From NCBI RefSeq assembly GCF_000283655.1, contig NC_016622.1, positions 1,066,501 through 1,130,500 of the forward strand: 64,000 nucleotides of DNA, read 5' to 3'. Below, piece by piece: positions 5,671 through 60,287 of the stretch. Within the stretch, counting starts at the first letter, position 1. Each line of letters starts with the position of its first letter. The notes beneath the pieces were generated by a model. The model was not told the DNA's origin, searched no databases, and worked only from the letters and a program-made list of their open reading frames with translations. Position numbers and translations under genes: made by a program. This stretch comes from Azospirillum lipoferum 4B. GTDB lineage: Bacteria; Pseudomonadota; Alphaproteobacteria; Azospirillales; Azospirillaceae.

Positions 5671-5678
5671 GAGCTTTG

Positions 5679-5778
5679 CCCCCTCCCTAACCCTCCCCCT
5701 CTTCGAGGGAGAGGGAACTCCGCCACTCCCGCGCCCAACTCCCTCTCCCGCGAAGCGGGGGAGGGTCGGGGAGGGGGC
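5679..5778. repeat. Large imperfect inverted repeat downstream of glgP
   Basis: Two arms of about 38 bases (5679-5716 and 5740-5778) are near-perfect inverted copies, both C/G-rich and built around CCCTCCC. Each arm also has its own small palindrome (CCTCTTCGAGG on the left, CCCGCGAAGCGGGG on the right). The 23-base spacer would form the loop. This looks like a dispersed intergenic palindromic element of the REP/attenuator sort. It may also end or protect the glgP transcript, but there is no U-tract. Confidence 0.7.
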
Positions 5779-46323: not shown

Positions 46324-46520
46324 GGGGGGCAGGGGGCGCCGGCTTACCGTGCCCCCATTCTCCCCATTCTCCCCATGCTTCGCATGGGTTCGCTCCTGCC
46401 TGAGTTGGTCCCCTTTTCCCGGACAGATTTGCGGCTTGGACAAGCTTGGTTCAGGTCCGCGTGATGCCGCCAGTCCGATCCGGTCCGATGGGCCTTGTTC
46501 GGCCTCGTTCGAGATTATGC

Positions 46521-46565
46521 CGCCGAGCGCCGAGCGCCGAGCGCCGAGCGCCGAGTGCCGAGTGC
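46521..46565. repeat. Heptanucleotide tandem repeat (CGCCGAG)n
   Basis: Five perfect CGCCGAG units at 46521-46555, then TGCCGAG and a partial TGC. Seven is not a multiple of three, so a change in number would shift any frame through it. On the minus strand it starts at the end of the transposase remnant (RPHSALG). Confidence 0.85.
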
Positions 46566-46790
46566 GGGCGGGCGGCGTTGTAACAATCGATCCAACGGCG
46601 GCGCCCCTCCATCGACATCCGAATGCCGGCCGACAGGCGCGGACGCTCCGGCTCGCTCATCTCCCGGCTCCGGTCGACGCTGATCGACGGAGGCCTTGCG
46701 CAAGAAAGTCGCGTTCCACGACCAACCGGCCGATCACCGCGTGCAGCTTTCCCACCTCGCCAACGTCACGGCAGACGGCTTTTTGAGAAT
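46521..46790 (-). pseudogene. Internally deleted IS3-family transposase remnant (OrfA end and OrfB fragments)
   Basis: The minus strand has VGKLHAVIGRLVVERDFLAQ, the usual C-terminus of IS3 OrfA. It is followed, with an ATGA overlap at 46657-46660, by EPERPRLSAG, an OrfB N-terminal motif. Then SMEGRRRWID and CYNAARPHSALG follow, which are normally about 150 residues further on (SMDGRGR and YNxxRPHSALG). The central DDE part is deleted. No inverted repeats were identified. It lies directly upstream of the iron operon. Confidence 0.65.
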
Positions 46791-46798
46791 TATTCGCA
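46784..46798. promoter_or_regulatory. Fur-like box upstream of the PepSY reductase operon
   Basis: TGAGAATTATTCGCA is a 7-1-7 palindrome with one mismatch. It matches the perfect palindrome TGCGAATCATTCGCA before fecI at 13 of 15 positions. It lies 73 bases upstream of the first gene of the iron operon. Confidence 0.6.
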
Positions 46799-46871
46799 CT
46801 CGACCGTGAGGCGATGGCCCAGTTCGTTCGTCTCAAGAGTCGGAGCGGCCGTTTCTGCGGAAGAGGATGAG

Positions 46872-48008
46872 ATGAGCGTTGGCAAGTCGCGCACGCGGCT
46901 GTGGTTCCTGTGGCACTCCTGGCTGGCGATGCCGATCTGGGCCTTCCTGTTCTTCGTCTGCCTGACCGGGACAATCGCCGTGGTCAGCACGGAGATCATG
47001 TGGCTGGTCAATCCCGCGATGCGAGCTTCGGGCGGGGGAGAGCCGCTGCCGGCCAGCGCACTGATTGCCGCCGCGGAAGCCGCGGCGCCGGGCGGCCGGG
47101 CGAATTCGCTGGATTGGGGCGGCTCCCACATGGCGGTCGGCGTGCAGATGGCGATGCCCGACGGAACCTTCGCCACCGCCTGGGTGAATCCCGTCAGCGG
47201 CGCGGTGCAGGGCATGTCCGCCGGCAACTCGTTCCGCATGTTCTTCCGCGCGCTGCACGGCTGGCTGCTGACCTTCCCCGTGGGCTGGTATCTGGTGACT
47301 CTCCTGGCGATACCGCTCCTCGGCTCGCTGATCACCGGGCTGGTGGTCTACAAGCGGTTCTGGAAGTCCTTCTACCAGCCGCGCATCCGCTGGCGGCAGG
47401 CGCCGCGGGTGATGTGGGGCGATCTGCACCGGGTCGCCGGAACCTGGTCGATCTGGTTCATCGCCGTCATTTCCGTCACCAGCCTGTGGTTCCTGATCTA
47501 CATGATGCTGTTCCATCTCGGGATGGGGCTCGGCGGCGGGAAGCCGCCGGTGCTGCTGGCGCGCGACCGGATCCCGGTTGCGGCGACGGCGCCGAAACCG
47601 GATGTGGACGCAATCCTGTCTGCCGCCGCCGCCGCCTTGCCCGACATGAGGGTGCGGTTTCTCTGGCTGCCCGGCACAGCCTACGATCCGGCGACGGTGG
47701 GCGGCTCCAGCGGGCAGGTGCCGCTGCTTCCCGACTATGTCCGGGTGGATCCCTTCACCGCCGAGGTGATCGCCATCGAGGGCGGAACGGGCGGCGGCTC
47801 CGCCATCGAGCTGACCCGCACCATCATGCGCGCCCTGCACACCGGCGATTTCGGCGGCCTGCCGGTCAAGCTGGTCTGGTTCGCCTTCGGCCTGCTGATG
47901 ACCACGCTGGTCTTCAGCGGAATGCTGATCTGGATGAAGCGGACCGCCCGCGCCACGGTCGAGGCGGTGCGGAGCCTGCGCATGGCGGAGGGATCGTCCA
48001 ATGCCTAG
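46872..48008 (+). CDS. PepSY-domain membrane protein, FpvG-like ferrisiderophore reductase
   Basis: This 378-residue inner membrane protein has four helices: AMPIWAFLFFVCLTGTIAVV, WYLVTLLAIPLLGSLITGLV, IWFIAVISVTSLWFLIYMML and VWFAFGLLMTTLVFSGMLIW. Periplasmic PepSY parts lie between them. Conserved His occur at the membrane edges (His15 in WHSW, LHGW, DLHRVAG, LHTG), as in haem-binding PepSY-TM reductases. In Pseudomonas aeruginosa, FpvG reduces iron in ferripyoverdine. It is the first of eight genes in the same order as fpvGHJK-fpvCDEF. ATG at 46872 follows GGAAGAGG. A Fur-like box lies upstream. The stop overlaps the next gene. Confidence 0.85.
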   Translation: MSVGKSRTRLWFLWHSWLAMPIWAFLFFVCLTGTIAVVSTEIMWLVNPAMRASGGGEPLPASALIAAAEAAAPGGRANSLDWGGSHMAVGVQMAMPDGTFATAWVNPVSGAVQGMSAGNSFRMFFRALHGWLLTFPVGWYLVTLLAIPLLGSLITGLVVYKRFWKSFYQPRIRWRQAPRVMWGDLHRVAGTWSIWFIAVISVTSLWFLIYMMLFHLGMGLGGGKPPVLLARDRIPVAATAPKPDVDAILSAAAAALPDMRVRFLWLPGTAYDPATVGGSSGQVPLLPDYVRVDPFTAEVIAIEGGTGGGSAIELTRTIMRALHTGDFGGLPVKLVWFAFGLLMTTLVFSGMLIWMKRTARATVEAVRSLRMAEGSSNA

Positions 48009-48459
48009 GTTCTGGCGACGCGGCCGGTTCCACCTCAGCGCGCTGATGCTGCTGGTGCCGCTGCCCTTCCTGCCCGACTATTTCAGCCCGAAGCCGATCT
48101 TCGTCCCGCCCGAGATCCGGCGCGACCTCGCCGTCGGAGACTTCTCCGTCACGCTGGCCACCTATGACGAGGCGCCGGGCCGGATGCCGACCGGGGAGCG
48201 GATGAAGGCGTACCGGATCCATGTCCGCCCCGCCGACATCGACCGGATTCGCGGGATCTTCCTGCGCGTCGGCAAGCCGCGCAGCCTGCGCACCGCGGGC
48301 ACGCTGGCCTTCGGCAATCCCTACGAGCGCGAGGCCGAGGTGACCGTGCCGGACGAGCTGGCCGGGCGGGAGGAGCTGTGGGTGACCGTCGAGGACTGGA
48401 GCGGCGGGATGCATCAGGCGTCGCTGCCGCTGGGCGAGATTTTCGGAGGAAGGCGATGA
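48001..48459 (+). CDS. FpvH-like membrane-anchored protein
   Basis: This 152-residue protein has one N-terminal membrane helix (LSALMLLVPLPFLPDYF) and a periplasmic beta-rich domain with KPIFVPPEIRRDLAVGDFSV and ELWVTVEDWSGG. On its own I would not recognise it. Its position between the PepSY gene and two small exported proteins matches FpvH of Pseudomonas, which assists the reductase FpvG in the inner membrane. The start overlaps the PepSY stop by 8 bases and the end overlaps the next start (ATGA). Confidence 0.6.
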   Translation: MPRFWRRGRFHLSALMLLVPLPFLPDYFSPKPIFVPPEIRRDLAVGDFSVTLATYDEAPGRMPTGERMKAYRIHVRPADIDRIRGIFLRVGKPRSLRTAGTLAFGNPYEREAEVTVPDELAGREELWVTVEDWSGGMHQASLPLGEIFGGRR

Positions 48460-48773
48460 GGTTCCCGCATGTGTCCGCCCTGGCGGGCCTGGTCACGCTG
48501 TGCGCCGCCGGCATGGCGGAGGCGCATTACCCGATCTGCGAATGCCATATGGTGGAGGGCGACACGGTGCAATGCACCGGCGGATTCTCGGACGGGTCGA
48601 AAGCGCCCGGCGTCGTTCTCGATGTCATCGCCTATGACGAGCAGGTCCTGGTCAAGGGCCGGCTTGGCCCGGATTCCACCCTATCCTTCCCTCGCCCTGC
48701 GCAGGACTTCTACGTCCTGTTCGACGCCGGCCCCGGCCATACGGTCGAGATCGAGCACACGGCCATCAAGTAA
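48456..48773 (+). CDS. FpvJ-like small exported protein
   Basis: This 105-residue protein has a signal peptide (ALAGLVTLCAAGMAEAH). The mature form is about 80 residues, beginning YPICECHMVEGDTVQCTGG, with three Cys (a CxC plus one) and a compact beta-rich body. The function is unknown, but it sits in the position of FpvJ, which interacts with FpvG and the binding proteins in iron release from pyoverdine. GGAGGAAGG precedes ATG at 48456, which overlaps the previous stop. The Cys cluster could bind metal or form a disulfide. Confidence 0.6.
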   Translation: MRFPHVSALAGLVTLCAAGMAEAHYPICECHMVEGDTVQCTGGFSDGSKAPGVVLDVIAYDEQVLVKGRLGPDSTLSFPRPAQDFYVLFDAGPGHTVEIEHTAIK

Positions 48774-48782
48774 GGCAACCCC

Positions 48783-49334
48783 ATGCATCGTCAGATCGTG
48801 CGCCGGGCGGGGGCCGAGCGCGAAACCCTGTGGGTCCTGCTGGCCGCCGGCGCCATTCTCGGTTCCGCCATTCTGGTCGTCGGACTGCGCGCCGCTCCGG
48901 ATGCGGAAGCCCCGCTGGCCACCCACCTCATCGACTCCCGGACCGGCCTGACGATCGCCGAGCAAGGCCTCTATGCCGATCTCAAGGCGGCGGGCGAGGA
49001 GATCGCCGCCATGCGCAAGGCCGATGACCGCGCTCCGACGCCGGAAGCGCTGGCCGCCGAGTCCCTGCCGCCCTTCGCCGCCGACCCCAGCGCTGCGGCG
49101 CGCGGCGGGCATGCCTGGACTCTCGCGGAAACCGGACAGGGGATCGCCTATGCCGGCGTCTCCGCCGCTCCGGAGCTGGCCGGTTCCCTTCTCTTGCGGC
49201 TGGACGGCCATGGCGCCGAAATCTGGCTGAAGCGTGCCGCCGAAACCCCGCCCGTTCCGCCGGAGGACGCGGCGCTGACCGCCGCCGGCTGGAAGCGGAT
49301 CGTCTCCACCTTCACCGCCGGGGTCACCCGATGA
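48783..49334 (+). CDS. FpvK-like membrane-anchored protein
   Basis: This 183-residue protein has a basic N-terminus, one membrane helix (LWVLLAAGAILGSAILVVGL) and a periplasmic part rich in Ala and acidic residues. It ends in IVSTFTAGVTR. No catalytic motif is visible. Its place just before the binding protein matches FpvK in the Pseudomonas operon. The stop overlaps the start of the next gene (ATGA), so translation is coupled. Confidence 0.6.
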   Translation: MHRQIVRRAGAERETLWVLLAAGAILGSAILVVGLRAAPDAEAPLATHLIDSRTGLTIAEQGLYADLKAAGEEIAAMRKADDRAPTPEALAAESLPPFAADPSAAARGGHAWTLAETGQGIAYAGVSAAPELAGSLLLRLDGHGAEIWLKRAAETPPVPPEDAALTAAGWKRIVSTFTAGVTR

Positions 49335-50251
49335 GCATCCTTCCGAACCGCCGCCTGATCCTGGCCGGCGCCCTGGCAGCCATGGCCGCGCCCGCAGGCG
49401 CCTTCGCCGCTCCCACCGCGCGCCGGCGCTTCGGCGTCACCCTGCACCCCTACTATTCCTATGTCGCCAACATCGTCGGCGATGCGGCCGAGGTGGTGCC
49501 GATCATTCCGGCCGGCTTCAACCCGCACGCCTACGAACCGCGCCCGGAGGACATCCGGCGCATCGGCGGGCTGGACGCCATCGTGCTGAACGGCATCGGC
49601 CACGACGATTTCGCTGGGCGGATGATCGCCGCCTCGTCGAAGCCGTCGTTGCCGGTGGTCGAGGCCAACACCGACGTGCCGCTCCTGCCCGCCGCCGGCA
49701 CGGCGGCGCGGGCGGCGGGGAAGGTGGTCAACCCGCACAGCTTCCTGTCCATCACCAACTCGATCCTTCAGGTTTCGACCATCGCCCGCGAACTGGGGCG
49801 GCTGGACCCGGACAACGCCGCTGCCTACACGGCCAACGCCCGCGCCTATTCCCGCCGCCTTCGCCAGCTGCGTGCCGACGCGCTGGCGAAGCTGGCGACG
49901 GCGGGAACCGCCAGCCTGCGCGTCGCCACCATCCATGGTGCCTACGACTACCTGCTGCGGGAGTTCGGGCTGGAGGTCTCCGCCGTCGTGGAACCCGCCC
50001 ACGGCATCGAGCCCAGCCCGGCCCAGCTTGCCGAAACCATCGCGACGATGCGCAAGCTCGACGTGCAGGTGATCTTCTCGGAACTGAACTTCCCCAGCGC
50101 CTATGTGGAGACCATCCGGCGCGAGACCGGCATCCGGCTCTATGCCTTCTCCCACATCTCGCATGGCGAATATGCACCCGACCTGTTCGAGCGCGAGATG
50201 GCGCGGAACCTCGATACGCTGGTCCTGGCAATGGCCGAGGCGGCGCCGTGA
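49331..50251 (+). CDS. ZnuA-like metal ABC transporter substrate-binding protein (FpvC-like)
   Basis: This 306-residue periplasmic protein has a signal peptide (LILAGALAAMAAPAGAFA). The cluster A-I type metal ligands are kept: His66 in NPHAYEP, His136 in NPHSFLS, His202 in TIHGAYDYL and Glu251 in SELNFP. This matches the spacing of ZnuA. In Pseudomonas, FpvC binds the iron freed from pyoverdine. Because the operon starts with a PepSY reductase and Fur-like box, I infer iron rather than zinc as ligand here. It is coupled to the ATPase by GTGA. Confidence 0.85.
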   Translation: MSILPNRRLILAGALAAMAAPAGAFAAPTARRRFGVTLHPYYSYVANIVGDAAEVVPIIPAGFNPHAYEPRPEDIRRIGGLDAIVLNGIGHDDFAGRMIAASSKPSLPVVEANTDVPLLPAAGTAARAAGKVVNPHSFLSITNSILQVSTIARELGRLDPDNAAAYTANARAYSRRLRQLRADALAKLATAGTASLRVATIHGAYDYLLREFGLEVSAVVEPAHGIEPSPAQLAETIATMRKLDVQVIFSELNFPSAYVETIRRETGIRLYAFSHISHGEYAPDLFEREMARNLDTLVLAMAEAAP

Positions 50252-50976
50252 CCGGGCCGGCCATCCTGTTCGACAGCGTGGAGCTGACGCTGGGCCGTAC
50301 CGCGATCCTGGACGGGGTGTCCCTTCGCGTCGCGGCCGGAGCCGTGCATGCGGTGGTCGGCCCCAACGGCGGCGGCAAGTCGTCTTTGATTCGCGCCCTG
50401 CTCGGGCAGGCGCCGCACCGCGGCACCATCCGGCTCGACTGGCCGGGCGACGGGCCGGGAACGGTCGCCTATGTGCCGCAGTCGGTCGAGTTCGACCGTG
50501 GCCTGCCGCTGACGGTGGAGGATTTCCTGGCCGTGCTGTGCCAGCGCCGCCCCGCCTTTCTCGGACCGGACCGGCGCATCGGCTATGGCGAGGCGCTGGC
50601 CCGCGTCGGGATGGCGGACAAGTCCCGCCGACGCTTCGGCGCCCTGTCGGGCGGCGAGCGGCAGCGCGTGCTGCTTGCCCAGGCGCTGATCCCGTCGCCG
50701 GACCTCCTTGTCCTCGACGAGCCGATGACCGCGCTCGACGAGGCGGGGATCGCCATCTTCGAAACGCTGCTGGCCGATCTTTCCGCCGCTGGAACCACCG
50801 TGCTGTGGGTCGAGCACGATCTGGCCCAGGTGCGCCGGCTGGCGACGCGGGCGACCGGGCTGAACCGGCGCGTGCTGTTCGACGGCCCCCCCGTGGAGAC
50901 GCTGTCGCCGGAACGGGTGTTCGACCTGTTCTCGGCGCTTCCCCGCCGCACGGCTGCCGACAGGATCGCATCATGA
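50248..50976 (+). CDS. Metal ABC transporter ATP-binding protein (FpvD-like)
   Basis: This 242-residue ATPase has Walker A GPNGGGKSS, the Q-loop YVPQSVEFD, the signature LSGGERQR, Walker B LLVLDEP and the switch His in VEHD. It belongs to the ZnuC/MntB cluster. It would power import by the permease that follows. Starts at GTG 50248 inside the previous stop. The end overlaps the permease start (ATGA). Confidence 0.93.
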   Translation: MTGPAILFDSVELTLGRTAILDGVSLRVAAGAVHAVVGPNGGGKSSLIRALLGQAPHRGTIRLDWPGDGPGTVAYVPQSVEFDRGLPLTVEDFLAVLCQRRPAFLGPDRRIGYGEALARVGMADKSRRRFGALSGGERQRVLLAQALIPSPDLLVLDEPMTALDEAGIAIFETLLADLSAAGTTVLWVEHDLAQVRRLATRATGLNRRVLFDGPPVETLSPERVFDLFSALPRRTAADRIAS

Positions 50977-51863
50977 ATTTCGAGACGGTGCGCGCCCTGC
51001 TGCAGGGCTGGGCCGAAGCCGGGCTGTTGCCCGCCGGGTTGGCCCATGGTTTTCTCGTCAACGCGTTGCTGTCCGGGTTGGTCGTCGGTCCCGTCCTCGG
51101 CGGGCTCGGCACGCTGGTGGTGACCAAGCGGCTGGCCTTCTTCTCCGAAGCGGTCGGCCATGCCGCGCTGACCGGCGTCGCCATCGGAATCCTGGTGGGA
51201 GAGCCCTATACCGGCCCTTATGCCAGCCTGTTCGGCTATTGCCTGCTGTTCGCCCTGCTGGTGAATTACACGCGCAACCGCAGCAACCTGACCGCCGACA
51301 CGCTGATCGGCGTCTTCCTGTCGGTGTCGCTGGCGCTGGGCGCCAGCCTTCTGCTGATCCTGGCCAGCCGGGTCAACATCCACATCCTGGAGAATGTGCT
51401 GTTCGGATCGGTGCTGACGGTGGACGACCGCGACCTCACCGTGCTGCTGGCGGTGGCCGCAGGAGTGACCGCGCTGATGCTGCCGCTGTTCAACCGGCTG
51501 CTGCTGGCCAGCTTCAACCCGGCGCTGGCGCGGGTGCGCGGCGTGCCGGTGAAGGGGCTGGACTATCTGTTCATCGTGCTGGTGACGGTGGTCACGGTCG
51601 CGTCCGTGAAGATCATCGGCGCCATCCTGGTGGGAGCGCTGCTGGTCATTCCCGCCGCGGCGGCGCGGGTCGTCGCCTCGTCGCTGCGTGGGTTTTTTCT
51701 GCTGTCCGTCGCCTTCGCCAGCGTGGCGGCGGTGGCCGGAATCCTGCTGCCCGTGCAGTTCGCCCTGCCGATTCCGTCGGGCGGCGCCATCATCCTGGCG
51801 GCGGGGGTGCTGTTCCTGGGCGCGCTGCTGGCGCGCCTGTTCATGAAGGGGGAAGAGGGATGA
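50973..51863 (+). CDS. Metal ABC transporter permease (FpvE-like)
   Basis: This 296-residue inner membrane protein has about eight helices and the ABC-3 family signature. TLVVTKRLAFFSEAVGHAAL is near residue 45, and KIIGAILVGALLVIPAAAAR is the conserved loop for contact with the ATPase. It forms the transmembrane path for iron or another divalent metal. ATG at 50973 overlaps the ATPase stop; its own stop overlaps the next start. Confidence 0.93.
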   Translation: MNFETVRALLQGWAEAGLLPAGLAHGFLVNALLSGLVVGPVLGGLGTLVVTKRLAFFSEAVGHAALTGVAIGILVGEPYTGPYASLFGYCLLFALLVNYTRNRSNLTADTLIGVFLSVSLALGASLLLILASRVNIHILENVLFGSVLTVDDRDLTVLLAVAAGVTALMLPLFNRLLLASFNPALARVRGVPVKGLDYLFIVLVTVVTVASVKIIGAILVGALLVIPAAAARVVASSLRGFFLLSVAFASVAAVAGILLPVQFALPIPSGGAIILAAGVLFLGALLARLFMKGEEG

Positions 51864-52723
51864 AGCGCGTCACGCTCGCGGCGCTCCTGCTGCTGTCCAC
51901 GATGGCTGGGGCCTCCGCCGAGACGGTGCTGGCCGGGCATCCCGTCACCGCCGGGCTGGCCCGGGCGCTGACGAAGGGCACCGCGGTGGTGGTGGAGGCG
52001 GTGGTTCCGCCGGCCATTCCCATGGGGCGCCAACACGCCTTCCTGAGCGGGCGCGGCGGTGCGATGCTGGCGGAGGCCGCCGGCAAGGCCGACGCGGTGC
52101 TGACCCTGCGCTCCGCCTGGGCGGAGGATCCGCTCTACCCGCTGGCGCGGCGGGCCAACATCCGCCTGATCGAGATCGACGCCGCCCGTCCGGTCGACGG
52201 CGCCCTGCCGGGGATCGCGGTCAATGACGGCACCGCCTTTCCCTGGCTGGGCATCGCCAATGCCGGGCGGATGGCCGACATCCTGGCCGCCGACCTGCGG
52301 CGCCTGTACCCGGAATCGGCCGTCGCCATCGACGCGAATCTCGCCGTCCTCAAGCGTGGGCTGCTGATGGTGTCGTCCAGCTCGGCGAAAGCCTTCGCCG
52401 TTCTGCCGGACCCGTCGGCGGCGGCGCTGTCCGACCGCTTCGCCACGCTGGCCGCCGACCTGGGGCTGGATTTGCGCCGGGTCTGGACCGGCGACGACCG
52501 AGATTGGACGCCGGACCGTCTGGCCGAACTCACCGCCACCCTGAAGGCCGAAGCCATTCCCGTCGTGCTGCACCACCGCCAGCCGGCGCCGGAGATCGTC
52601 CGGGCGGTGACCGACGGCGGCGCCCGGCTGGTGGTTCTGGACAGTCTGGAGAGCGGTCCGCCGGCGGAGATGGACATGGCGCTGTTGCGGATCGCGGAAC
52701 AGGTGGAGGCGGGGCTGCGCTGA
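51860..52723 (+). CDS. Second ZnuA-like binding protein with lost metal ligand (FpvF-like)
   Basis: This 287-residue exported protein has a signal peptide (ALLLLSTMAGASA) and a divergent ZnuA-like fold. The helix ANAGRMADILAADLRRLYPE follows AFPWLGI, where metal-binding relatives have the ligand His of DPHxWLDP; here it is Phe/Pro. The site of the third His is also not evident. A binding protein that has lost the metal site fits FpvF, which is reported to bind the siderophore rather than free iron. It is the last gene of the operon, 28 bases from the convergent MacB-like gene. Confidence 0.75.
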   Translation: MKRVTLAALLLLSTMAGASAETVLAGHPVTAGLARALTKGTAVVVEAVVPPAIPMGRQHAFLSGRGGAMLAEAAGKADAVLTLRSAWAEDPLYPLARRANIRLIEIDAARPVDGALPGIAVNDGTAFPWLGIANAGRMADILAADLRRLYPESAVAIDANLAVLKRGLLMVSSSSAKAFAVLPDPSAAALSDRFATLAADLGLDLRRVWTGDDRDWTPDRLAELTATLKAEAIPVVLHHRQPAPEIVRAVTDGGARLVVLDSLESGPPAEMDMALLRIAEQVEAGLR

Positions 52724-52751
52724 GCGGCCCCCCCACCCCTCAGTCCGCCCG

Positions 52752-54709
<1,958 letters not shown>

Positions 54710-54713
<4 letters not shown>

Positions 54714-55936
54714 AGCCGGAACCCGATTTTGGGCGGGCGGCCGTCGTCGGTCTTCCACCCCACCACGATCCGTTCGCCTTCGGCCAGCCCGTCCAGGATC
54801 TGGGCGTTGAAGCGGTCGCGCACCCCGACGCGGACCTCACGGGTCTCGATGGCACCGCCGTTGCCGATCAGTGTGACTCTGTGCCGTTCCTCCGCCCCGC
54901 CGGTCGGAGCCAGCGCGGCGACCGGAATGGTCAAGGCGTCCCTCGCCGCGGCGGCCAGGAAGAATACCTGGGCGGTCATGTCCGGGCGCAAATCCCCCTC
55001 ATGGTTGGAGACTTCGAACAGTGCGGTGTAGAGCACGACGCTGTTGGCCGACCCGCCGCTCCCGGACGGGGGCGAGCTGCCGCCGGTCCCCGACGCGGCC
55101 GGCTTGAGCGGGGCGGGCAGAATCTGTTGCAGGCGCGCCGTCCAGCGCCTTCCCGGATGGCCGAGCGTGGTGAAATAGAGCGGCATGCCGTCGGTCAGGC
55201 GCGTCACGTCGGCCTCCGACACCTGGGTCCACACCGTCATGGCCGACAGGTCGGCGATGCGCATCAGGACCGGCGCCTCGTAGGTCGAATTGATGGTCTG
55301 CCCCTGGCGCGCGTCCACGGCGATCAGCGTGCCGCTCATCGGCGCATAGATGCGGGTGTAGCCGAGCTGCGCCTCGTCGGCCTGGAGGGTCGAGTCCGTC
55401 TGGCGGATCTGCGCCTGCGTGGCCTCCACCTGGGCGGCGGCGATGTGCGCCTCCATGCGGGCCTGATCGTAGGCCTCGCCGCGCCCCGCCCCGCTGTTCC
55501 GCAGCGATGCCTGGCGGGCAAGCTGGGCCTCGGCGAAGGCCGCCCGCGCCCGCTGCTCCGTCAGAAGGGCGGTCAGGCGGGCGCGTTCGGCGCGCCCGGC
55601 CTCGACCTTGGCCTGCTGCAGGGCAGGGTCGATTTCGGCGAGCAGATCGCCGGCGCGGACCATCTGCCCGACCGTCACATGCAGCCGCGTCAACTGGCCG
55701 GACACCTGGGCGCCGACATCGACATAAGCGCGTGGCTGGATCTTGCCGATCGCCGTCACCGTGTCCTCGACCGTGCCGCGACCGACCACCGCAACCTCCG
55801 CCGAGGCGGCGGGATCGGCCGGGCGCAGCAGGGCGGCGGAGGCCAGCCCGCCGAGCACCAGCGCCGCCGCCGCGAGGCCGCGCCGCCGCCGCCCGGTGCC
55901 GGACGACCTTGCCGCCCGCCGCCCCGTCGTCACCAT
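54710..55936 (-). CDS. MacA/PvdR-like periplasmic adaptor protein
   Basis: This 408-residue HlyD-family protein has an N-terminal membrane anchor (GLAAAALVLGGLASAALL). A lipoyl-like domain is split around GTVEDTVTAIGKIQPRAYVDVGAQ and YAPMSGTLIAVD. Between them is an alpha-helical hairpin (QAKVEAGRAERARLTALLTEQRA). The beta-barrel has a Gly/Ser/Pro-rich loop (SSPPSGSGGS). It links the MacB-like exporter to an outer membrane channel. Its start overlaps the end of the receptor gene by 7 bases and its end overlaps the exporter start. Confidence 0.9.
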
Positions 55937-58416
55937 GTCGCCCGCAGGGACAGCAGGACGTTGCGCGGCTCGCCGTAATAGCCGGAGACGTCGATGCTGC
56001 TCATGTATTTCTTGTCGAGCAGGTTGTTGACGTTCAGGGTTGCCGAAACCTTGTCGGTGATCTCATAGCGTGCCATCAGATCGACCACCGCATAGCCTTC
56101 GCGGTCGTACCTTTCGGTGCCGGTCCCGGTGTAGACGTCGCCTTCCCATTTGACGTTGCCGCCCACCGTCAGACGGTTCCAGGCGCCCGGCAGGCGATAG
56201 GTGGTGAACAGCTTGAAGCTGTCGCGCGGCACATAGGTCATCAGCCGCTGACCGTCGGCATTCTTGACGGAGGAATGGCTGTAACCGCCGCCGACCTGCC
56301 AGCCGGTCATCACCTCGCCGCCGACTTCCATCTCGAAGCCCCGGCTTTCGGCCCCCTTGACCGCGCGGTAGGCCTGCGCGCCGGACGGGGTGAAGCGTCC
56401 GGGATCGACCTCGCCAAGATTGTTCTGCTTGATCAGGAACACGGCGGCGCTGGCGTTCAGGGCGCCGCCGAAGAACTCCGCCTTCACGCCGGCCTCGTAG
56501 GCATCGCCGTCCAGCGGGTCGAGGGACCGGCCGCTGGCGTCCTTGTAATCCTGCGGCTTGAAGATGCTGGTGTAGCTGGCATAGACCGACCAGATGTCGG
56601 TCAGGTCGAGCACGACCCCCGCATAGGGCGTCAGAACGCCGTTCTCCGACCGCTTGCTGTAGGTTCCCTCCGCCCCGTTCGGGTGGCTCTCCTCGATCTG
56701 CTCCCACCGGCTGATGCGGCTGCCGAGGATGACCGACAGGGCGTCGGTCGGGCGCAGGCGGGTGGCGGCATAGGCGGCCATCTGCCGTTCGTCGGTCTGC
56801 GACCAGCCGGTCGGATTGAGCGTCGGCCGGGCGATGTTGCCGTTCCAGGTGAAGTAGTTGGAGATCGAGGGATCGTAGCCGTCGATGAACCACAGCGGGT
56901 GGTCGGCCCCGTCCCGCTTGGCGTAATAGCCGCTGACGCCGGCCATCAGGTCGTGCCGCCGTCCGAACAGGTCGAAGCCGCCGCTCACGTCGGCGCTGAC
57001 CGTGGTCTGCTGCAGGCTCGACAGCCAGCGGCCGGCCCATACGCTCATGCCGGTGCCGTCGCGGTTCAGGCTGCCGCCGGTGCCGAAGCCGAGCAGGCTG
57101 TCATATTCGCGCTTGTTGTGTTCAAGGTTCAGCGTTGCCGTCCAGCCGTCCCCGAAGCGGTGCTTCAGCTCGCTGAAAACCGTCAGGTTGTTGTGCATGT
57201 GGTACGCCCAATCCGCACCACTGTTGTAGGAACGGGGCAGGTCGGTCTTCGTCCCGTCGGCATAGAACAGCGGGAAGCCGGCATTGGAGGCATGGTCGGA
57301 ACGGTGCTTCTGATATTCGACGCCGACCGTCCAGGTGGTGTCCTCGGTGACATCGGCCTCCAGAACGCCGTACAGGACCCTCTTGTGCTCTTCCAGGCGG
57401 TCGATGAAGCTGTCGTTGTCCTGATAGGCGCCGACGATGCGTCCGCGCAGCCGGCCATTCTCGGTCAGCGGACCCGACAGGTCGGCTTCGCCGCGGCGGC
57501 GGTTCCAGGATCCGACCTGCGCTTCGGCATAGCCCTGGACGGCCGATGTCGGGCGCTTGCGGACCAGATTGACCGAGGCCGACGGCTCGCCGACACCATT
57601 CAGAAGGCCGGACGCGCCGCGCACCACCTCGACCCGGTCGAACACCGCCATGTCGGAAAGGGAATCGTCGAAACCATAGACGGTCGAGCGCGGGATTCCG
57701 TTAACCTGATAGTTGGAAACCACGAATCCGCGCGAGAAGACCTCGTTTCCGTCGCTGCCCATTGCGCCGCGCTGCATCCGGGTGACGCCCACCGTCTGCT
57801 CGAGCACGTCGCGGATCTCGTTCAGCCCCTGGTCGTCCATGCGCTGGCGGGTCATCACGCTGACCGACTGCGGCGTCTCTCGCGGGGTCAGGTCGAGCTT
57901 GGTGGCGCTGCTGCTGACGCCGCCGGCGTAGGAGCCGGTATCCTCGCTGCGGCCGGGATCGCGGGACAGAGCCCCTTGCACGGTCACCGGATCGAGAACC
58001 GCTGCCCCGCCGGTCTGGGCCGGCAGCTTCTCCAGCGTCACCGTTTCCGGATCGACGAAGCGCGCGATCAGTCCGGTGCCCGCCAGCAGGCGGGCCAGTG
58101 CGTCCTTCGGTGCAAGGGTGCCGGTCACACCCGGCGAGGAGACGCCCTGCGCGATCTCCGATGGGTAGAGAATCTGAAAGCCGGTGGCCTGCCCGTAGGC
58201 GGCGAGCACGCCCGGCAGCGGTCCGGCGGCAATGGCGAAGGTGACGGTCCGCCCCTGTTGGGCCACCTGCACCGACGCAGCCCCGGTCTCCATAGGGGCC
58301 GCCAGGGCACCGTGCAGCGCGGTCGATCCCAGCAGCATGCCCAACAGTGCGGGTGTCCACCCAACCCGCAAGAATTTTCCACGCACCCCGATTGCCCGCG
58401 CCGACTGCCCCCGCAT
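55930..58416 (-). CDS. TonB-dependent siderophore receptor with signalling (STN) domain, FpvA/FhuE-like
   Basis: This outer membrane protein of about 828 residues has a signal peptide (PALLGMLLGSTALHGALA) and an STN domain (VTFAIAAGPLPGVLAAYGQATGFQILY, then LLAGTGLIARFVDPETVTLE). The plug domain has TPQSVSVMTRQRM, FSRGF and RVEVVRGASGLLNGVGEPSASVNLVRKRP, and a 22-strand barrel ends in aromatic ATW. This is the FpvA/FhuE siderophore class. The STN domain and the FecI/FecR pair upstream suggest transmembrane signalling. The start is uncertain: ATG 58476 lies inside a Fur-like box and is unlikely; 58440 and 58416 are in frame, and GGTGGGGGG favours 58416. Confidence 0.93.
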   Translation of the reverse strand: MRGQSARAIGVRGKFLRVGWTPALLGMLLGSTALHGALAAPMETGAASVQVAQQGRTVTFAIAAGPLPGVLAAYGQATGFQILYPSEIAQGVSSPGVTGTLAPKDALARLLAGTGLIARFVDPETVTLEKLPAQTGGAAVLDPVTVQGALSRDPGRSEDTGSYAGGVSSSATKLDLTPRETPQSVSVMTRQRMDDQGLNEIRDVLEQTVGVTRMQRGAMGSDGNEVFSRGFVVSNYQVNGIPRSTVYGFDDSLSDMAVFDRVEVVRGASGLLNGVGEPSASVNLVRKRPTSAVQGYAEAQVGSWNRRRGEADLSGPLTENGRLRGRIVGAYQDNDSFIDRLEEHKRVLYGVLEADVTEDTTWTVGVEYQKHRSDHASNAGFPLFYADGTKTDLPRSYNSGADWAYHMHNNLTVFSELKHRFGDGWTATLNLEHNKREYDSLLGFGTGGSLNRDGTGMSVWAGRWLSSLQQTTVSADVSGGFDLFGRRHDLMAGVSGYYAKRDGADHPLWFIDGYDPSISNYFTWNGNIARPTLNPTGWSQTDERQMAAYAATRLRPTDALSVILGSRISRWEQIEESHPNGAEGTYSKRSENGVLTPYAGVVLDLTDIWSVYASYTSIFKPQDYKDASGRSLDPLDGDAYEAGVKAEFFGGALNASAAVFLIKQNNLGEVDPGRFTPSGAQAYRAVKGAESRGFEMEVGGEVMTGWQVGGGYSHSSVKNADGQRLMTYVPRDSFKLFTTYRLPGAWNRLTVGGNVKWEGDVYTGTGTERYDREGYAVVDLMARYEITDKVSATLNVNNLLDKKYMSSIDVSGYYGEPRNVLLSLRATW

Positions 58417-58460
58417 CCGGCGCCCCCCACCATTGATCATCACCACATACCCCGTCGTTC

Positions 58461-58480
58461 TGCGAATGAGTTGCATTCTC
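58461..58480. promoter_or_regulatory. Fur-like box upstream of the receptor gene
   Basis: TGCGAATGAGTTGCATTCTC contains GAATG and CATTC in inverted orientation around a 5-base centre. It is less perfect than the fecI box. It lies 45 bases upstream of the chosen receptor start. Confidence 0.45.
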
Positions 58481-58551
58481 TTCGATGCAAGCCATGACGA
58501 TGGCCGACCGGGGGATCCTCACCTCGATTTGAAAAAAATCAGACGAACCGG

Positions 58552-59499
58552 TTAGGCGGAACGAATGATCACCAGACCGGGAAATGGGCGCGACATGCGC
58601 AGGGGGAGCATGCGGAGAATGGCATTCAACGCCGCGTCCGGTCGGCTGATGTCCACGCTGCCGTCGAAGCGCAGGCCGGCGAGCGGGCGGTCCCACAGCA
58701 CGATGCGGTCGGGATGGTAGCGGTTGAGGTCGGCGATCACCGCGTCGAGCGGCTGTGCCTGAAAGACCAGACGGCCCTGCCGCCAAGCGTTTTCCACCGC
58801 CAAGCCCTGGTTCAGCAGCGGGCTGGGGCCATCGGGGCCGTAGGACCGGCTTTGCCCCGCGGCGATTGTCAGGGGAGACGCGGTGCCGGCGGTCAGGCTG
58901 GCCGTTCCGGCCTCCACCGCCACCACGACGGAGTCCGGACAGCGATGCACCACGAAGCTTGCGTTGACGGTGGAGACGTGTCCGTTGGCGCACGTCACGA
59001 CGAAAGGGCGATCCGGGTTGGGGGCGGCAACGAAATGCGCCCGCCCCTCGGTCAGGCGGATCCGCCGTTCCTCGGCTGTGAAATCGATGGACAGCGTGCT
59101 GGCCGCGTCCAGAGTGATGACCGAGCCGTCGGCGAGCGCCATCGTCCGCCGTTCGCCGATGCCGGTCTTCACATCGCCCGGCCAACCGGTCAGCACGACC
59201 GCGCCGCCCAGCGCCGCTGCGCAGGCCGCCGCCCCGCCCGCCGCGCCGAAGGCCAGCAAACGGCGCCGCGTCGTGACCGTCCGGCGGTTCTTGCGCGGAT
59301 CGGGCACCCGGTCCAGATCGCCCCACACCCCGGCCAGCCGGTCATATTCACGCCGGTGCGCCGGGTCCTGCGCCAGCCAATGGGCGAGCGCTTGGCGATC
59401 TGCCGGGCCGACGTCCCCGGACTTCAGACGAACGAACCAGGCCAGCGCCGCGTCGCGCGGATCGTCCGGTAAGGCAGGCTGCTCTCGGTTCCGTTCCAT
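58552..59499 (-). CDS. FecR-type anti-sigma factor / sigma regulator
   Basis: This 315-residue protein has an N-terminal cytoplasmic part with DAALAWFVRLKSGDVGPADR and the WLAQDPAHRREYDRL motif. One membrane helix follows (LLAFGAAGGAAACAAALGGAVVL). The periplasmic FecR domain has TMALADGSVITLDAASTLS and VTCANGHVSTVNASFVVH, and a C-terminal STN-like end contains LDAVIADLNRYHPDRIVL. It relays a signal from the receptor STN domain to FecI. The start overlaps the FecI stop by one base. Confidence 0.93.
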   Translation of the reverse strand: MERNREQPALPDDPRDAALAWFVRLKSGDVGPADRQALAHWLAQDPAHRREYDRLAGVWGDLDRVPDPRKNRRTVTTRRRLLAFGAAGGAAACAAALGGAVVLTGWPGDVKTGIGERRTMALADGSVITLDAASTLSIDFTAEERRIRLTEGRAHFVAAPNPDRPFVVTCANGHVSTVNASFVVHRCPDSVVVAVEAGTASLTAGTASPLTIAAGQSRSYGPDGPSPLLNQGLAVENAWRQGRLVFQAQPLDAVIADLNRYHPDRIVLWDRPLAGLRFDGSVDISRPDAALNAILRMLPLRMSRPFPGLVIIRSA

Positions 59500-60005
59500 C
59501 AGAGCTCCAGCCGGTCACGGCAATGGGCCAAGGCCTTCATGACATGCTTCTCCACCATGCTGCGCGAGATGCCGAGGCGGGCGGCAATGTCGGCATGGCT
59601 CAAGCCGTCGAATTTGTGAAGCAGAAACACTTCCCGGCAGCGCGGCGGCAGTTCGGCGAGCGCCCCGCTCAACCGCTCCATCCGTTGCTTGTGCTCCAGG
59701 GCGGTTTCGGCGTCCGGCTCGTCCAGCGGCTGGTCGAGCCCCAGTTCCGCCGGGGCGAAGCGCCGTCCCCGACGGGTTTCCGCGCGCATGCGGTCCAACG
59801 CGATATTGTCGGCCATGCGGTACAGGTAGGAACGCGGATTGTCGATGTCCGGCAGCGCCGTCAGGCTACGCAGGCGCAGATAGGTGTCCTGCACGACATC
59901 CTCGGCCAGGCAAAGCGACCCCAGGCGTCGAGCCAGATGGCCCGTCATCTCCTCGTAATGGTCGAGCAACAGACCCAGCAGGGACGACCGGTCTCTTTCA
60001 GCCAT
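59499..60005 (-). CDS. FecI-type ECF sigma factor
   Basis: This 168-residue sigma factor has region 2 with LCLAEDVVQDTYLRLRS and the -10-binding NPRSYLYRMADNIALDRMRAE. Region 4 has LPPRCREVFLLHKFDGLSHADIAARLGISRSMVEKHV. This is the iron-starvation FecI class, and in context the counterpart of FpvI. I chose ATG at 60005 (MAERDRSSLL); GTG at 60053 would put the start 4 bases from the Fur-like box without a ribosome site. The order sigma, FecR, receptor, MacA, MacB on the same strand indicates one operon. Confidence 0.93.
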   Translation of the reverse strand: MAERDRSSLLGLLLDHYEEMTGHLARRLGSLCLAEDVVQDTYLRLRSLTALPDIDNPRSYLYRMADNIALDRMRAETRRGRRFAPAELGLDQPLDEPDAETALEHKQRMERLSGALAELPPRCREVFLLHKFDGLSHADIAARLGISRSMVEKHVMKALAHCRDRLEL

Positions 60006-60056
60006 GACCTCGGCAACACCCGTTCCCAATCCGTGAGCGTCATTCCTAACCACGTA

Positions 60057-60071
60057 TGCGAATCATTCGCA
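60057..60071. promoter_or_regulatory. Perfect Fur-like box upstream of fecI
   Basis: TGCGAATCATTCGCA is a perfect 15-base palindrome with the GAATCATTC core of Fur sites. It lies 51 bases upstream of the sigma start, where it would block its promoter when iron is plentiful. Confidence 0.7.
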
Positions 60072-60287
60072 ATCGATAGATCGACATGAGAGGAAAACTT
60101 TGCTGCGAAGAGGTGAGGGGAGGGGCGGCGGCGAACGTCCTATCGTCAACCTCCTTTCAATCCACAGCACAGGGATCCGTGCCTCACCGGCGCTGCGGGA
60201 TGTCGGTGCGAGAATGAGGGGCTGGTGATGGCGTGAGGTGACATGGTGGACGGCCCATTCATCACATCACCACAGGGGCAATGCGCA
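60072..60287. other. Intergenic region between fecI and the cupin gene
   Basis: This 216-base stretch lies upstream of fecI and downstream of the leftward cupin gene. No gene or clear terminator was seen. Confidence 0.35.

What the first reader, a model, noticed from the sequence alone, without database searches (positions are those of the whole stretch)
46872..60005. Complete pyoverdine-type ferrisiderophore uptake, iron-release and recycling module in an alphaproteobacterium
Seen in sequence: eight overlapping rightward genes encode a PepSY-TM protein, a small membrane protein, a small Cys-containing exported protein, another small membrane protein, a ZnuA-like binding protein, ATPase, permease and a second binding protein. 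A convergent operon encodes FecI, FecR, an STN-containing TonB receptor, and MacA-like and MacB-like proteins. Established: in Pseudomonas aeruginosa fpvGHJK-fpvCDEF has the same order and releases iron from ferripyoverdine by reduction in the periplasm; fpvI-fpvR-pvdR-pvdT gives signalling and siderophore recycling. Inference: this is a self-contained module that takes up, reduces, strips and re-exports a siderophore. No synthetase lies in the window, so the siderophore may come from other bacteria.
Basis: partly seen in the sequence, partly recalled or inferred. Interest (0 to 1): 0.88.

Follow-up and report, generated by a model that had tools for sequence, protein, structure and literature searches.

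The report
Mobile pyoverdine-type iron-stripping cassette in Azospirillum
A plant-root bacterium carries a 13-gene cassette, related to the one Pseudomonas uses to strip iron from its own siderophore, without the genes to make a siderophore beside it, and the cassette appears to have moved between species, which suggests it lives off iron carriers made by neighbours.

Summary
Confirmed and extended. The eight rightward genes (46872-52723) match fpvGHJKCDEF in sequence and order: all eight lie in this order in 79 of 80 fetched loci (68 Pseudomonas, 1 Achromobacter, 10 Azospirillum). The convergent operon (52752-60005) is fpvI-fpvR-like, TonB receptor, pvdR-pvdT-like. An inverted-repeat operator precedes fecI and fpvG; only eight such sites occur in the nearest 6.9-Mb genome, all before iron- or heme-uptake or regulatory genes. 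So this is an iron system, not a zinc one. New here: the cassette is a discrete block inserted between der and a cupin gene, a site empty in six relatives, and its tree conflicts strongly with the der tree, pointing to transfer from the A. brasilense side. The receptor co-occurs with fpvK (13 of 13 against 1 of 24), even where unlinked. Ten of 13 carriers lack both hydroxamate-synthesis markers searched. Relatives in Vibrio and Cereibacter fuse FpvH to the reductase or its partner. Not shown: that the ligand is pyoverdine. No OpmQ-type pump partner in the window. Structure jobs never ran.

The parts
46784..46798 (+). iron-regulon operator TGAGAATTATTCGCA upstream of fpvG
   Evidence: 1 mismatch to TGCGAATNATTCGCA; window expectation at <=1 mismatch 0.1; same site in G001, one of 8 in 6.9 Mb. 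Weaker elsewhere: of 11 other Azospirillum copies, 9 have 2 mismatches, 1 has 3, 1 has none found
46872..48008 (+). FpvG-type PepSY_TM periplasmic iron reductase (378 aa)
   Evidence: PF03929 178 bits; 46% identical to the P. aeruginosa protein beside an NRPS gene in a record that holds the pvd genes; H15, H129, H186, H323 invariant in 82 rows
48001..48459 (+). FpvH-type membrane protein (152 aa)
   Evidence: 35-45% to the syntenic gene in 69 of 69 Pseudomonas/Achromobacter loci L032-L100
48456..48773 (+). FpvJ-type exported protein (105 aa), motif A-H-x-P-x-C-x-C...C
   Evidence: 54-65% in 69 of 69 loci; H24, C30, C40 invariant in 84 rows, C28 in 98%; distant NikL match in 28 of 28 members, 38 bits here against a cut-off of 100
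48783..49334 (+). FpvK-type membrane protein (183 aa)
   Evidence: PF19659 DUF6162 129 bits; 39-49% in 69 of 69 loci
49331..50251 (+). FpvC-type iron-binding periplasmic protein
   Evidence: 443 bits to PDB 6r3z/6ru4, next other family 86 bits; 73% identity; 67-74% in 69 of 69 loci
50248..50976 (+). FpvD-type ABC ATPase
   Evidence: 62-68% in 69 of 69 loci
50973..51863 (+). FpvE-type ABC-3 permease
   Evidence: PF00950 168 bits; 68-72% in 69 of 69 loci
51860..52723 (+). FpvF-type second binding protein (apo-siderophore binder in P. aeruginosa, PMC6954188)
   Evidence: 42-50% in 69 of 69 loci
52752..54713 (-). PvdT-type MacB exporter
   Evidence: 53.7% over 656 aa to P. aeruginosa PvdT; best hits in six Pseudomonas genomes 52-54%, other MacB hits 45-48%; start GTG
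54710..55936 (-). PvdR-type MacA adaptor
   Evidence: 47.9% to P. aeruginosa PvdR
55930..58476 (-). FpvA/FauA/FhuE-superfamily TonB receptor with STN signalling domain (start codon uncertain)
   Evidence: PDB best FpvA 557 bits, FauA 477, FhuE 464; PF07660 STN
58552..59499 (-). FpvR-type FecR anti-sigma
   Evidence: 28% to P. aeruginosa FpvR; PF04773
59499..60005 (-). FpvI-type ECF sigma factor
   Evidence: 44.5% to P. aeruginosa FpvI; best hit beside the PvdRT-like pair in 4 of 7 genomes
60057..60071 (-). iron-regulon operator TGCGAATNATTCGCA upstream of fecI
   Evidence: 0 mismatches; a copy with <=1 mismatch at fecI in 6 of 6 other Azospirillum loci in which fecI was found
46336..46755 (.). 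left border: IS3-like transposase remnant and CGCCGAG repeats
   Evidence: no match in the empty sites or in the G001 module; rve_3 E 2.6e-5, 24.3 bits, just under its cut-off of 26.5; repeats; the IS3 label is recalled
46756..60200 (.). inserted block, shared with G001 contig C3
   Evidence: homology ends at these points

Best explanation
A horizontally acquired, iron-regulated, Fpv-type reductive siderophore-stripping cassette used for siderophores made by others. Model: under iron starvation the operator is released; FecI, freed by FecR when the loaded STN receptor signals, boosts the receptor operon; the receptor imports a ferric siderophore; FpvC/FpvF bind it; FpvG with FpvH reduces Fe(III) in the periplasm, helped by FpvJ (a probable metal-handling His/Cys protein) and FpvK; FpvC hands Fe(II) to FpvDE; FpvF hands the empty siderophore to the PvdRT-type pump, which exports it with a host TolC-type protein. 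Shown here: gene content, homology, order, operators and the genes they precede, receptor co-occurrence, insertion, conflict of trees. Taken from P. aeruginosa: the biochemical steps. Inferred: that the ligand comes from neighbours, most likely a pyoverdine or another hydroxamate-bearing siderophore, and that it is recycled.
For: fpvGHJKCDEF order in 79 of 80 loci; FpvC 443 bits on 6r3z/6ru4 with the six His that are Gly in the deposited variant 6r6k all kept; PvdT/PvdR/FpvI resemblance; 8 of 8 operator places in G001 before iron- or heme-uptake or regulatory genes; receptor at 68% identity or more in 13 of 13 fpvK carriers against 1 of 24 others, Fisher 3.9e-9 uncorrected for kinship; strong ornithine-hydroxylase hit in only 2 of 13 carriers, IucA/C in 1 of 13, and G017 with neither these nor MbtH; no PvdA/Q/P/M/N/O/F or OpmQ homologue in the window at E 1e-5, PvdE matching only the ABC domain of MacB. 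FpvH fused to a PepSY reductase in Vibrio and to DUF3325 in Cereibacter supports a reductase-FpvH unit. P. aeruginosa roles: PMC6954188 (abstract, introduction and discussion read).
Against: No OpmQ-type component in the window. Receptor ligand unresolved; of nine P. aeruginosa FpvA pocket residues (recalled) one is kept, though pvd-locus FpvAs keep none or one of them too. The fpv half and the receptor half can be apart. 11 of 13 carriers hold MbtH, so they may make some NRPS product, and G001, the nearest genome, holds IucA/C. One receptor occurs without fpvK (G011); G023 and G029 hold more distant receptors (41 and 39%), not counted; G430 and G432 have the receptor but were not searched for fpvK. 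Lack of hydroxylase in carriers is not significantly different from non-carriers (2 of 13 against 8 of 24, p 0.44). The fpvG operator is weaker in the other species. The window's own genome is not held. No structure model could be made.
Confidence: 0.82

Rival explanations
1. Same machine, but the ligand is a non-pyoverdine hydroxamate (alcaligin-, rhodotorulate- or ferrioxamine-like), made by fungi or other bacteria.
For: FauA and FhuE models score 623 and 583 bits on the receptor, both under their cut-offs; grouping with FauA/FhuE is not rejected (p 0.276); P. aeruginosa FpvA pocket mostly absent; PepSY reductases serve hydroxamates elsewhere (PMC10866019 and PMC13001220, passages seen).
Against: Best tree places the receptor with pvd-locus FpvAs, not fully supported (89/96; 94/95); the pump and sigma partners resemble pyoverdine-locus ones. 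Two pvd-locus FpvAs score 543-562 bits on the same FauA and FhuE models, so model names do not decide.
Confidence: 0.4
2. The cassette serves a siderophore that its host makes itself.
For: MbtH in 11 of 13 carriers; ornithine hydroxylase in G003 and G008; IucA/C in G001.
Against: No pvd-type synthesis or maturation gene in the window; in G003 and G008 the hydroxylase lies about 280 kb and 3.8 Mb from fpvK, in G001 IucA/C is on another contig; G017 has none of the three markers; the shared block holds no biosynthesis gene.
Confidence: 0.15
3. A zinc or manganese uptake operon beside an unrelated siderophore receptor operon.
For: ZnuA/ABC-3 Pfam names; public annotation calls the binding proteins zinc ABC proteins.
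Against: 443 against 86 bits; operator shared with iron and heme genes; receptor co-occurrence even when unlinked. Zur sites were not searched for.
Confidence: 0.03

Closest known systems
P. aeruginosa fpvGHJK-fpvCDEF pyoverdine iron-release system (PMC6954188)
   Same: eight homologous genes in the order that the paper names; FpvC 73% identical to PDB 6r3z/6ru4 (that this is P. aeruginosa FpvC is recalled)
   Different: no synthetase beside it; in Azospirillum; carried as a block with receptor, sigma/anti-sigma and pump; apparently transferred between species
P. aeruginosa fpvI-fpvR-pvdR-pvdT-opmQ and fpvA (record NZ_CP137515.1)
   Same: sigma, anti-sigma, adaptor, MacB in the same order; PvdT 53.7%, PvdR 47.9%, FpvI 44.5%, FpvR 28%
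   Different: receptor gene sits between FecR and MacA; no OpmQ; FecI and FecR run in the same direction here but divergently there
Caulobacter hiuABC and Burkholderia fhuB xenosiderophore reductase systems (PMC13001220, PMC10866019; passages seen)
   Same: TonB receptor plus PepSY reductase for foreign siderophores
   Different: hiuABC holds no ABC importer; no recycling pump was seen in the passages
A. brasilense Sp245 eight-gene siderophore transport cluster beside a PvdS-like sigma gene (PMC3899980, passages seen)
   Same: siderophore transport genes by a fecI-type sigma factor in Azospirillum
   Different: not called Fpv in the passages seen; sigma factor reported 56% to PsbS, here at most 46% to the nearest hits in seven genomes; whether it is the same locus was not settled

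Membership tests
Fpv reductive iron-release system | fpvG,H,J,K,C,D,E,F homologues in this order in one run of genes | tested here: met
Fpv reductive iron-release system | PepSY_TM reductase with conserved His (heme ligands in FoxB, PMC13001220 passages) | tested here: met
   H15, H129, H186, H323 invariant in 82 rows (the Cereibacter row scored too low and was left out); heme binding itself not tested
Fpv reductive iron-release system | FpvC metal-site His | tested here: met
   six positions that are Gly in variant 6r6k are His here; that they are the ligands is inferred
Fpv reductive iron-release system | reduction and periplasmic release of siderophore iron | not testable with these tools
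   needs the bench
Pyoverdine uptake pathway | receptor orthologous to FpvA and binding pyoverdine | tested here: inconclusive
Pyoverdine uptake pathway | pyoverdine synthesis and maturation genes alongside | tested here: not met
   PvdA, Q, P, M, N, O, F, E: none in window; rest of own genome not held
PvdRT-OpmQ recycling pump | nearest relatives are PvdR and PvdT | tested here: met
   only seven other genomes were compared
PvdRT-OpmQ recycling pump | OpmQ outer-membrane partner encoded with it | tested here: not met
   no OpmQ hit in window at E 1e-5
ZnuABC zinc importer | binding protein in ZnuA proper | tested here: not met
   NCBIfam ZnuA 43 bits against a cut-off of 268
ZnuABC zinc importer | zinc (Zur) regulation | not tested
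   an iron-regulon operator was found instead

The most novel reading that the evidence does not exclude
A mobile siderophore-piracy-and-recycling island: FpvJKCDEF is an exchangeable ferrous-iron kernel that pairs with different reductase units (FpvG+FpvH here; one PepSY-FpvH fusion protein in a Vibrio plasmid; PepSY + DUF3649 + DUF3325-FpvH fusion in Cereibacter; none nearby in Telmatospirillum), spreads among root bacteria without any synthetase, and lets a non-producer strip, re-export and reuse a neighbour's pyoverdine again and again.
Probability: 0.35. Interest if true: 0.78.

Novelty: new variant of a known kind. Interest (0 to 1): 0.58.

Why it matters
PMC6954188 presents iron delivery in the periplasm as a particularity of the pyoverdine pathway, probably conserved among fluorescent pseudomonads. 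Here the whole stripping and recycling side, cut away from synthesis, sits as a movable block in Azospirillum, a root bacterium used as a crop inoculant (recalled). That makes a testable case of siderophore cheating between two groups of root bacteria, asks why a user that does not make the siderophore would re-export it, and gives further lineages in which to work out FpvH, FpvJ and FpvK, whose roles that paper calls unknown. The two FpvH fusions point to FpvH as a reductase partner, and FpvJKCDEF looks like the common kernel.

Tried and rejected
Zinc reading: rejected. Naming the ligand from FpvA pocket residues, recalled: the test failed as a test, because pvd-locus FpvAs do not keep those residues either. 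Naming it from receptor trees: not decisive (one search warns of one very long branch). E. coli Fur consensus (recalled): only 1 site with 3 mismatches, and chance gives such a site in 17 of 100 shuffles; an inverted repeat seen by eye at both promoters worked better, so that motif was chosen after looking; the genome-wide test in G001 and the gene check came afterwards. My first reading of the Vibrio cluster as lacking FpvH was wrong: a check showed it fused to the PepSY protein. Viral contigs: nothing with FpvK or FpvC. Rfam and tRNA: nothing. Solved structures for FpvF and FpvJ: nothing useful. A repeat pattern sought in the fetched loci found nothing. Papers: in the listings shown no title or abstract start linked fpvGHJK with Azospirillum, and no paper held DUF6162; the library holds only openly licensed PMC papers, and only listed rows were looked at.


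Full report
What is there. Thirteen genes fill 46872-60005. Rightward: PepSY_TM reductase, two small proteins without Pfam match, DUF6162, ZnuA-type binding protein, ATPase, ABC-3 permease, second binding protein. Leftward and convergent: ECF sigma factor, FecR, STN-bearing TonB receptor, MacA-like adaptor, MacB-like exporter.

Is it Fpv? Yes by sequence and order. A scan of genome contigs with an FpvC alignment found 449 relatives; the best 80 were kept: 10 Azospirillum, 1 Telmatospirillum, 1 Achromobacter, 68 Pseudomonas. All eight genes lie in the order G-H-J-K-C-D-E-F on one strand in 79 of 80; the exception, Telmatospirillum, lacks G and H. In the 69 Pseudomonas/Achromobacter loci the identities to the window are FpvG 41-47, FpvH 35-45, FpvJ 54-65, FpvK 39-49, FpvC 67-74, FpvD 62-68, FpvE 68-72, FpvF 42-50%. 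A P. aeruginosa record has this FpvG (46%) beside an NRPS gene and elsewhere names pvdQ, pvdR, pvdT, pvdP, pvdM and pvdN. FpvC scores 443 bits on PDB 6r3z/6ru4, the next family 86; the listing names these chains only 'probable adhesion protein', and that they are P. aeruginosa FpvC is recalled. I could not run the structure comparison: every permitted request found the queue full.

The convergent operon. In the P. aeruginosa pvd locus the order is sigma factor, FecR, PvdR, PvdT, OpmQ, with the receptor further on (the names FpvI, FpvR and FpvA are mine from position). The window MacB is 53.7% identical to PvdT, MacA 47.9% to PvdR, FecI 44.5% to FpvI, FecR 28% to FpvR, the receptor 25% to that strain's FpvA. 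Seven genomes reached through fetched loci were searched with MacB (six Pseudomonas, one Achromobacter): the best hit is 52-54% in each Pseudomonas genome and 45% in Achromobacter, other MacB hits 46-48%. In G421, G423 and G424 it lies 11-16 kb from the best receptor hit, next to which an ABC gene of the PvdE type (TIGR01194) was confirmed; in G422 it lies in the fpv locus L097; in G427 and G428, 1.4-1.5 kb from the best FecI hit. The best FecI hit lies 1.4-1.5 kb from that MacB in 4 of 7 genomes, with a PvdR-like gene between. In P. mendocina the pvdT-pvdR-fecR/fecI genes lie about 4 kb upstream of fpvGHJKCDEF, the closest arrangement to this one that I saw. Nothing like PvdA, Q, P, M, N, O, F or OpmQ is in the window at E 1e-5.

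Regulation. TGCGAATNATTCGCA occurs at 60057 (perfect, before fecI) and 46784 (one mismatch, before fpvG); about 0.1 sites at up to one mismatch are expected in the window (10 resamplings). Six of six other Azospirillum loci in which fecI was found keep a site with at most one mismatch there. The fpvG site is weaker elsewhere: of 11 copies, 9 have two mismatches, 1 three, 1 none found; Shinella, Cereibacter and Achromobacter show none. In the 6.9-Mb nearest genome only eight places fit with up to one mismatch, none for the reversed control: fecI and fpvG of the module, an ECF sigma gene, two TonB receptors, HutX (heme), an AraC regulator and ExbB. For the last six I chose the flanking frame that looked like a gene before scanning it. 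This is an iron regulon, presumably Fur; the protein was not tested.

Insertion and transfer. Homology with the G001 copy runs from 46756 to 60200, and with six other Azospirillum copies from 46784 to 60139-60147; no other match over 150 bp was found in the fetched flanks. In G001, G014, G025, G016, G010 and G003 der (EngA family) and the downstream cupin gene (PF06172) adjoin, five with about 90-160 bp and G025 with about 1.4 kb between: an empty site. G001 carries its module on another contig (C3). The window's left border holds an IS3-like transposase remnant (rve_3 E 2.6e-5, just under its cut-off). By der the window is 93.3% like G008 and 92.5% like G003 but 80.6-82.0% like eight genomes of another group; by the module it is 82.0% and 81.3% against 86.8-89.1%. 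Those eight are unnamed; I call them A. brasilense-type because named A. brasilense and A. argentinense copies have the same module identity (87-90%). Trees agree: der puts window, G001, G003 and G008 together (100/99); the module nests window and G001 among the eight (100/99), and one clade of the four is rejected (p 2e-154; the group was named after seeing the identities). The core side rests on der alone, with the M24 peptidase gene consistent by identity.

Who eats what? DUF6162 occurs in 13 of 37 genus genomes and 0 of 24 others of the class, and in 3 of 385 class genomes (G001 included; at most 11 candidates per genome were scored there). The receptor (68-96%) is in 13 of 13 carriers and 1 of 24 non-carriers, including carriers where it is on another contig or far away, such as G009, G013, G018 and G027 (Fisher 3.9e-9, not corrected for kinship). 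Left out of that count: distant receptors in G023 and G029 (41, 39%), and G429-G432, not searched for fpvK. Strong ornithine-hydroxylase hits (over 280 bits; weaker oxidoreductase hits dropped) are in 2 of 13 carriers and 8 of 24 non-carriers (p 0.44), IucA/C in 1 of 13 and 7 of 24, MbtH in 11 of 13 and 16 of 24; 10 of 13 carriers lack the first two and G017 lacks all three. PMC3899980 (passages) reports enterobactin genes in A. brasilense, which may explain MbtH. A foreign siderophore is therefore likely but not proved; the window's own genome is not held. The receptor's family position (FpvA/FauA/FhuE) leaves the ligand open.

Wider pattern. The Cereibacter azotoformans conjugative plasmid has FecI-FecR-receptor, a longer PepSY protein, DUF3649, a DUF3325-FpvH fusion, then FpvJ-FpvK-FpvCDEF. 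A Vibrio plasmid has a receptor, a 585-aa protein with PepSY_TM and, in the same frame near its end, an FpvH-like stretch (39% over 67 aa, E 2.6e-11), then FpvJ, a DUF6162 protein and FpvCDEF (FpvC 50%, FpvE 51%, FpvF 30%). Telmatospirillum has FpvJKCDEF without G and H in the fetched stretch. Shinella zoogloeoides has the full eight with two receptor sets, while Shinella HZN7 shows only fpvGH. So FpvJKCDEF looks like a kernel with exchangeable reductase parts, and two independent-looking fusions tie FpvH to the reductase side. FpvJ keeps A-H-x-P-x-C-x-C...C (H24, C30, C40 invariant in 84 rows, C28 in 98%) and resembles NikL distantly (28 of 28 members), hence my guess that it handles the metal.

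Verdict. Observation confirmed; Fpv identity well supported; pyoverdine as ligand open; new are the synthetase-free block, its tree conflict and empty sites, its iron operators, the FpvH fusions and the exchangeable kernel.

Noticed in passing
L020 8904-16046 (Cereibacter azotoformans pORIO2): Different PepSY reductase with DUF3649 and a DUF3325-FpvH fusion ahead of FpvJKCDEF, on a plasmid typed conjugative.
   Followed up: partly
L211 4700-13320 (Vibrio sp. THAF190c plasmid): Receptor, a PepSY_TM protein with an FpvH-like stretch fused near its end, FpvJ, DUF6162 and FpvCDEF.
   Followed up: partly
L031 8920-13393 (Telmatospirillum sp. J64-1): fpvJKCDEF without fpvGH nearby, with a Fur-like site (2 mismatches to the E. 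coli consensus) upstream.
   Followed up: partly
L018, L019 (unnamed class genomes): Distant DUF6162/FpvC-like clusters with extra small exported proteins, one DUF4198-like by eye.
   Followed up: no
window 46451-46790 and 46521-46569: IS3-like transposase remnant and a short CGCCGAG direct repeat at the left border of the block.
   Followed up: partly
window 5673-5765: GC-rich repeat whose relatives lie in the empty der-cupin site of G001, G003 and G016.
   Followed up: no
L014 14980-16924 (Shinella sp. HZN7): fpvGH followed by one short frame, with no fpvCDEF match in the fetched 31 kb: perhaps a truncated copy.
   Followed up: no
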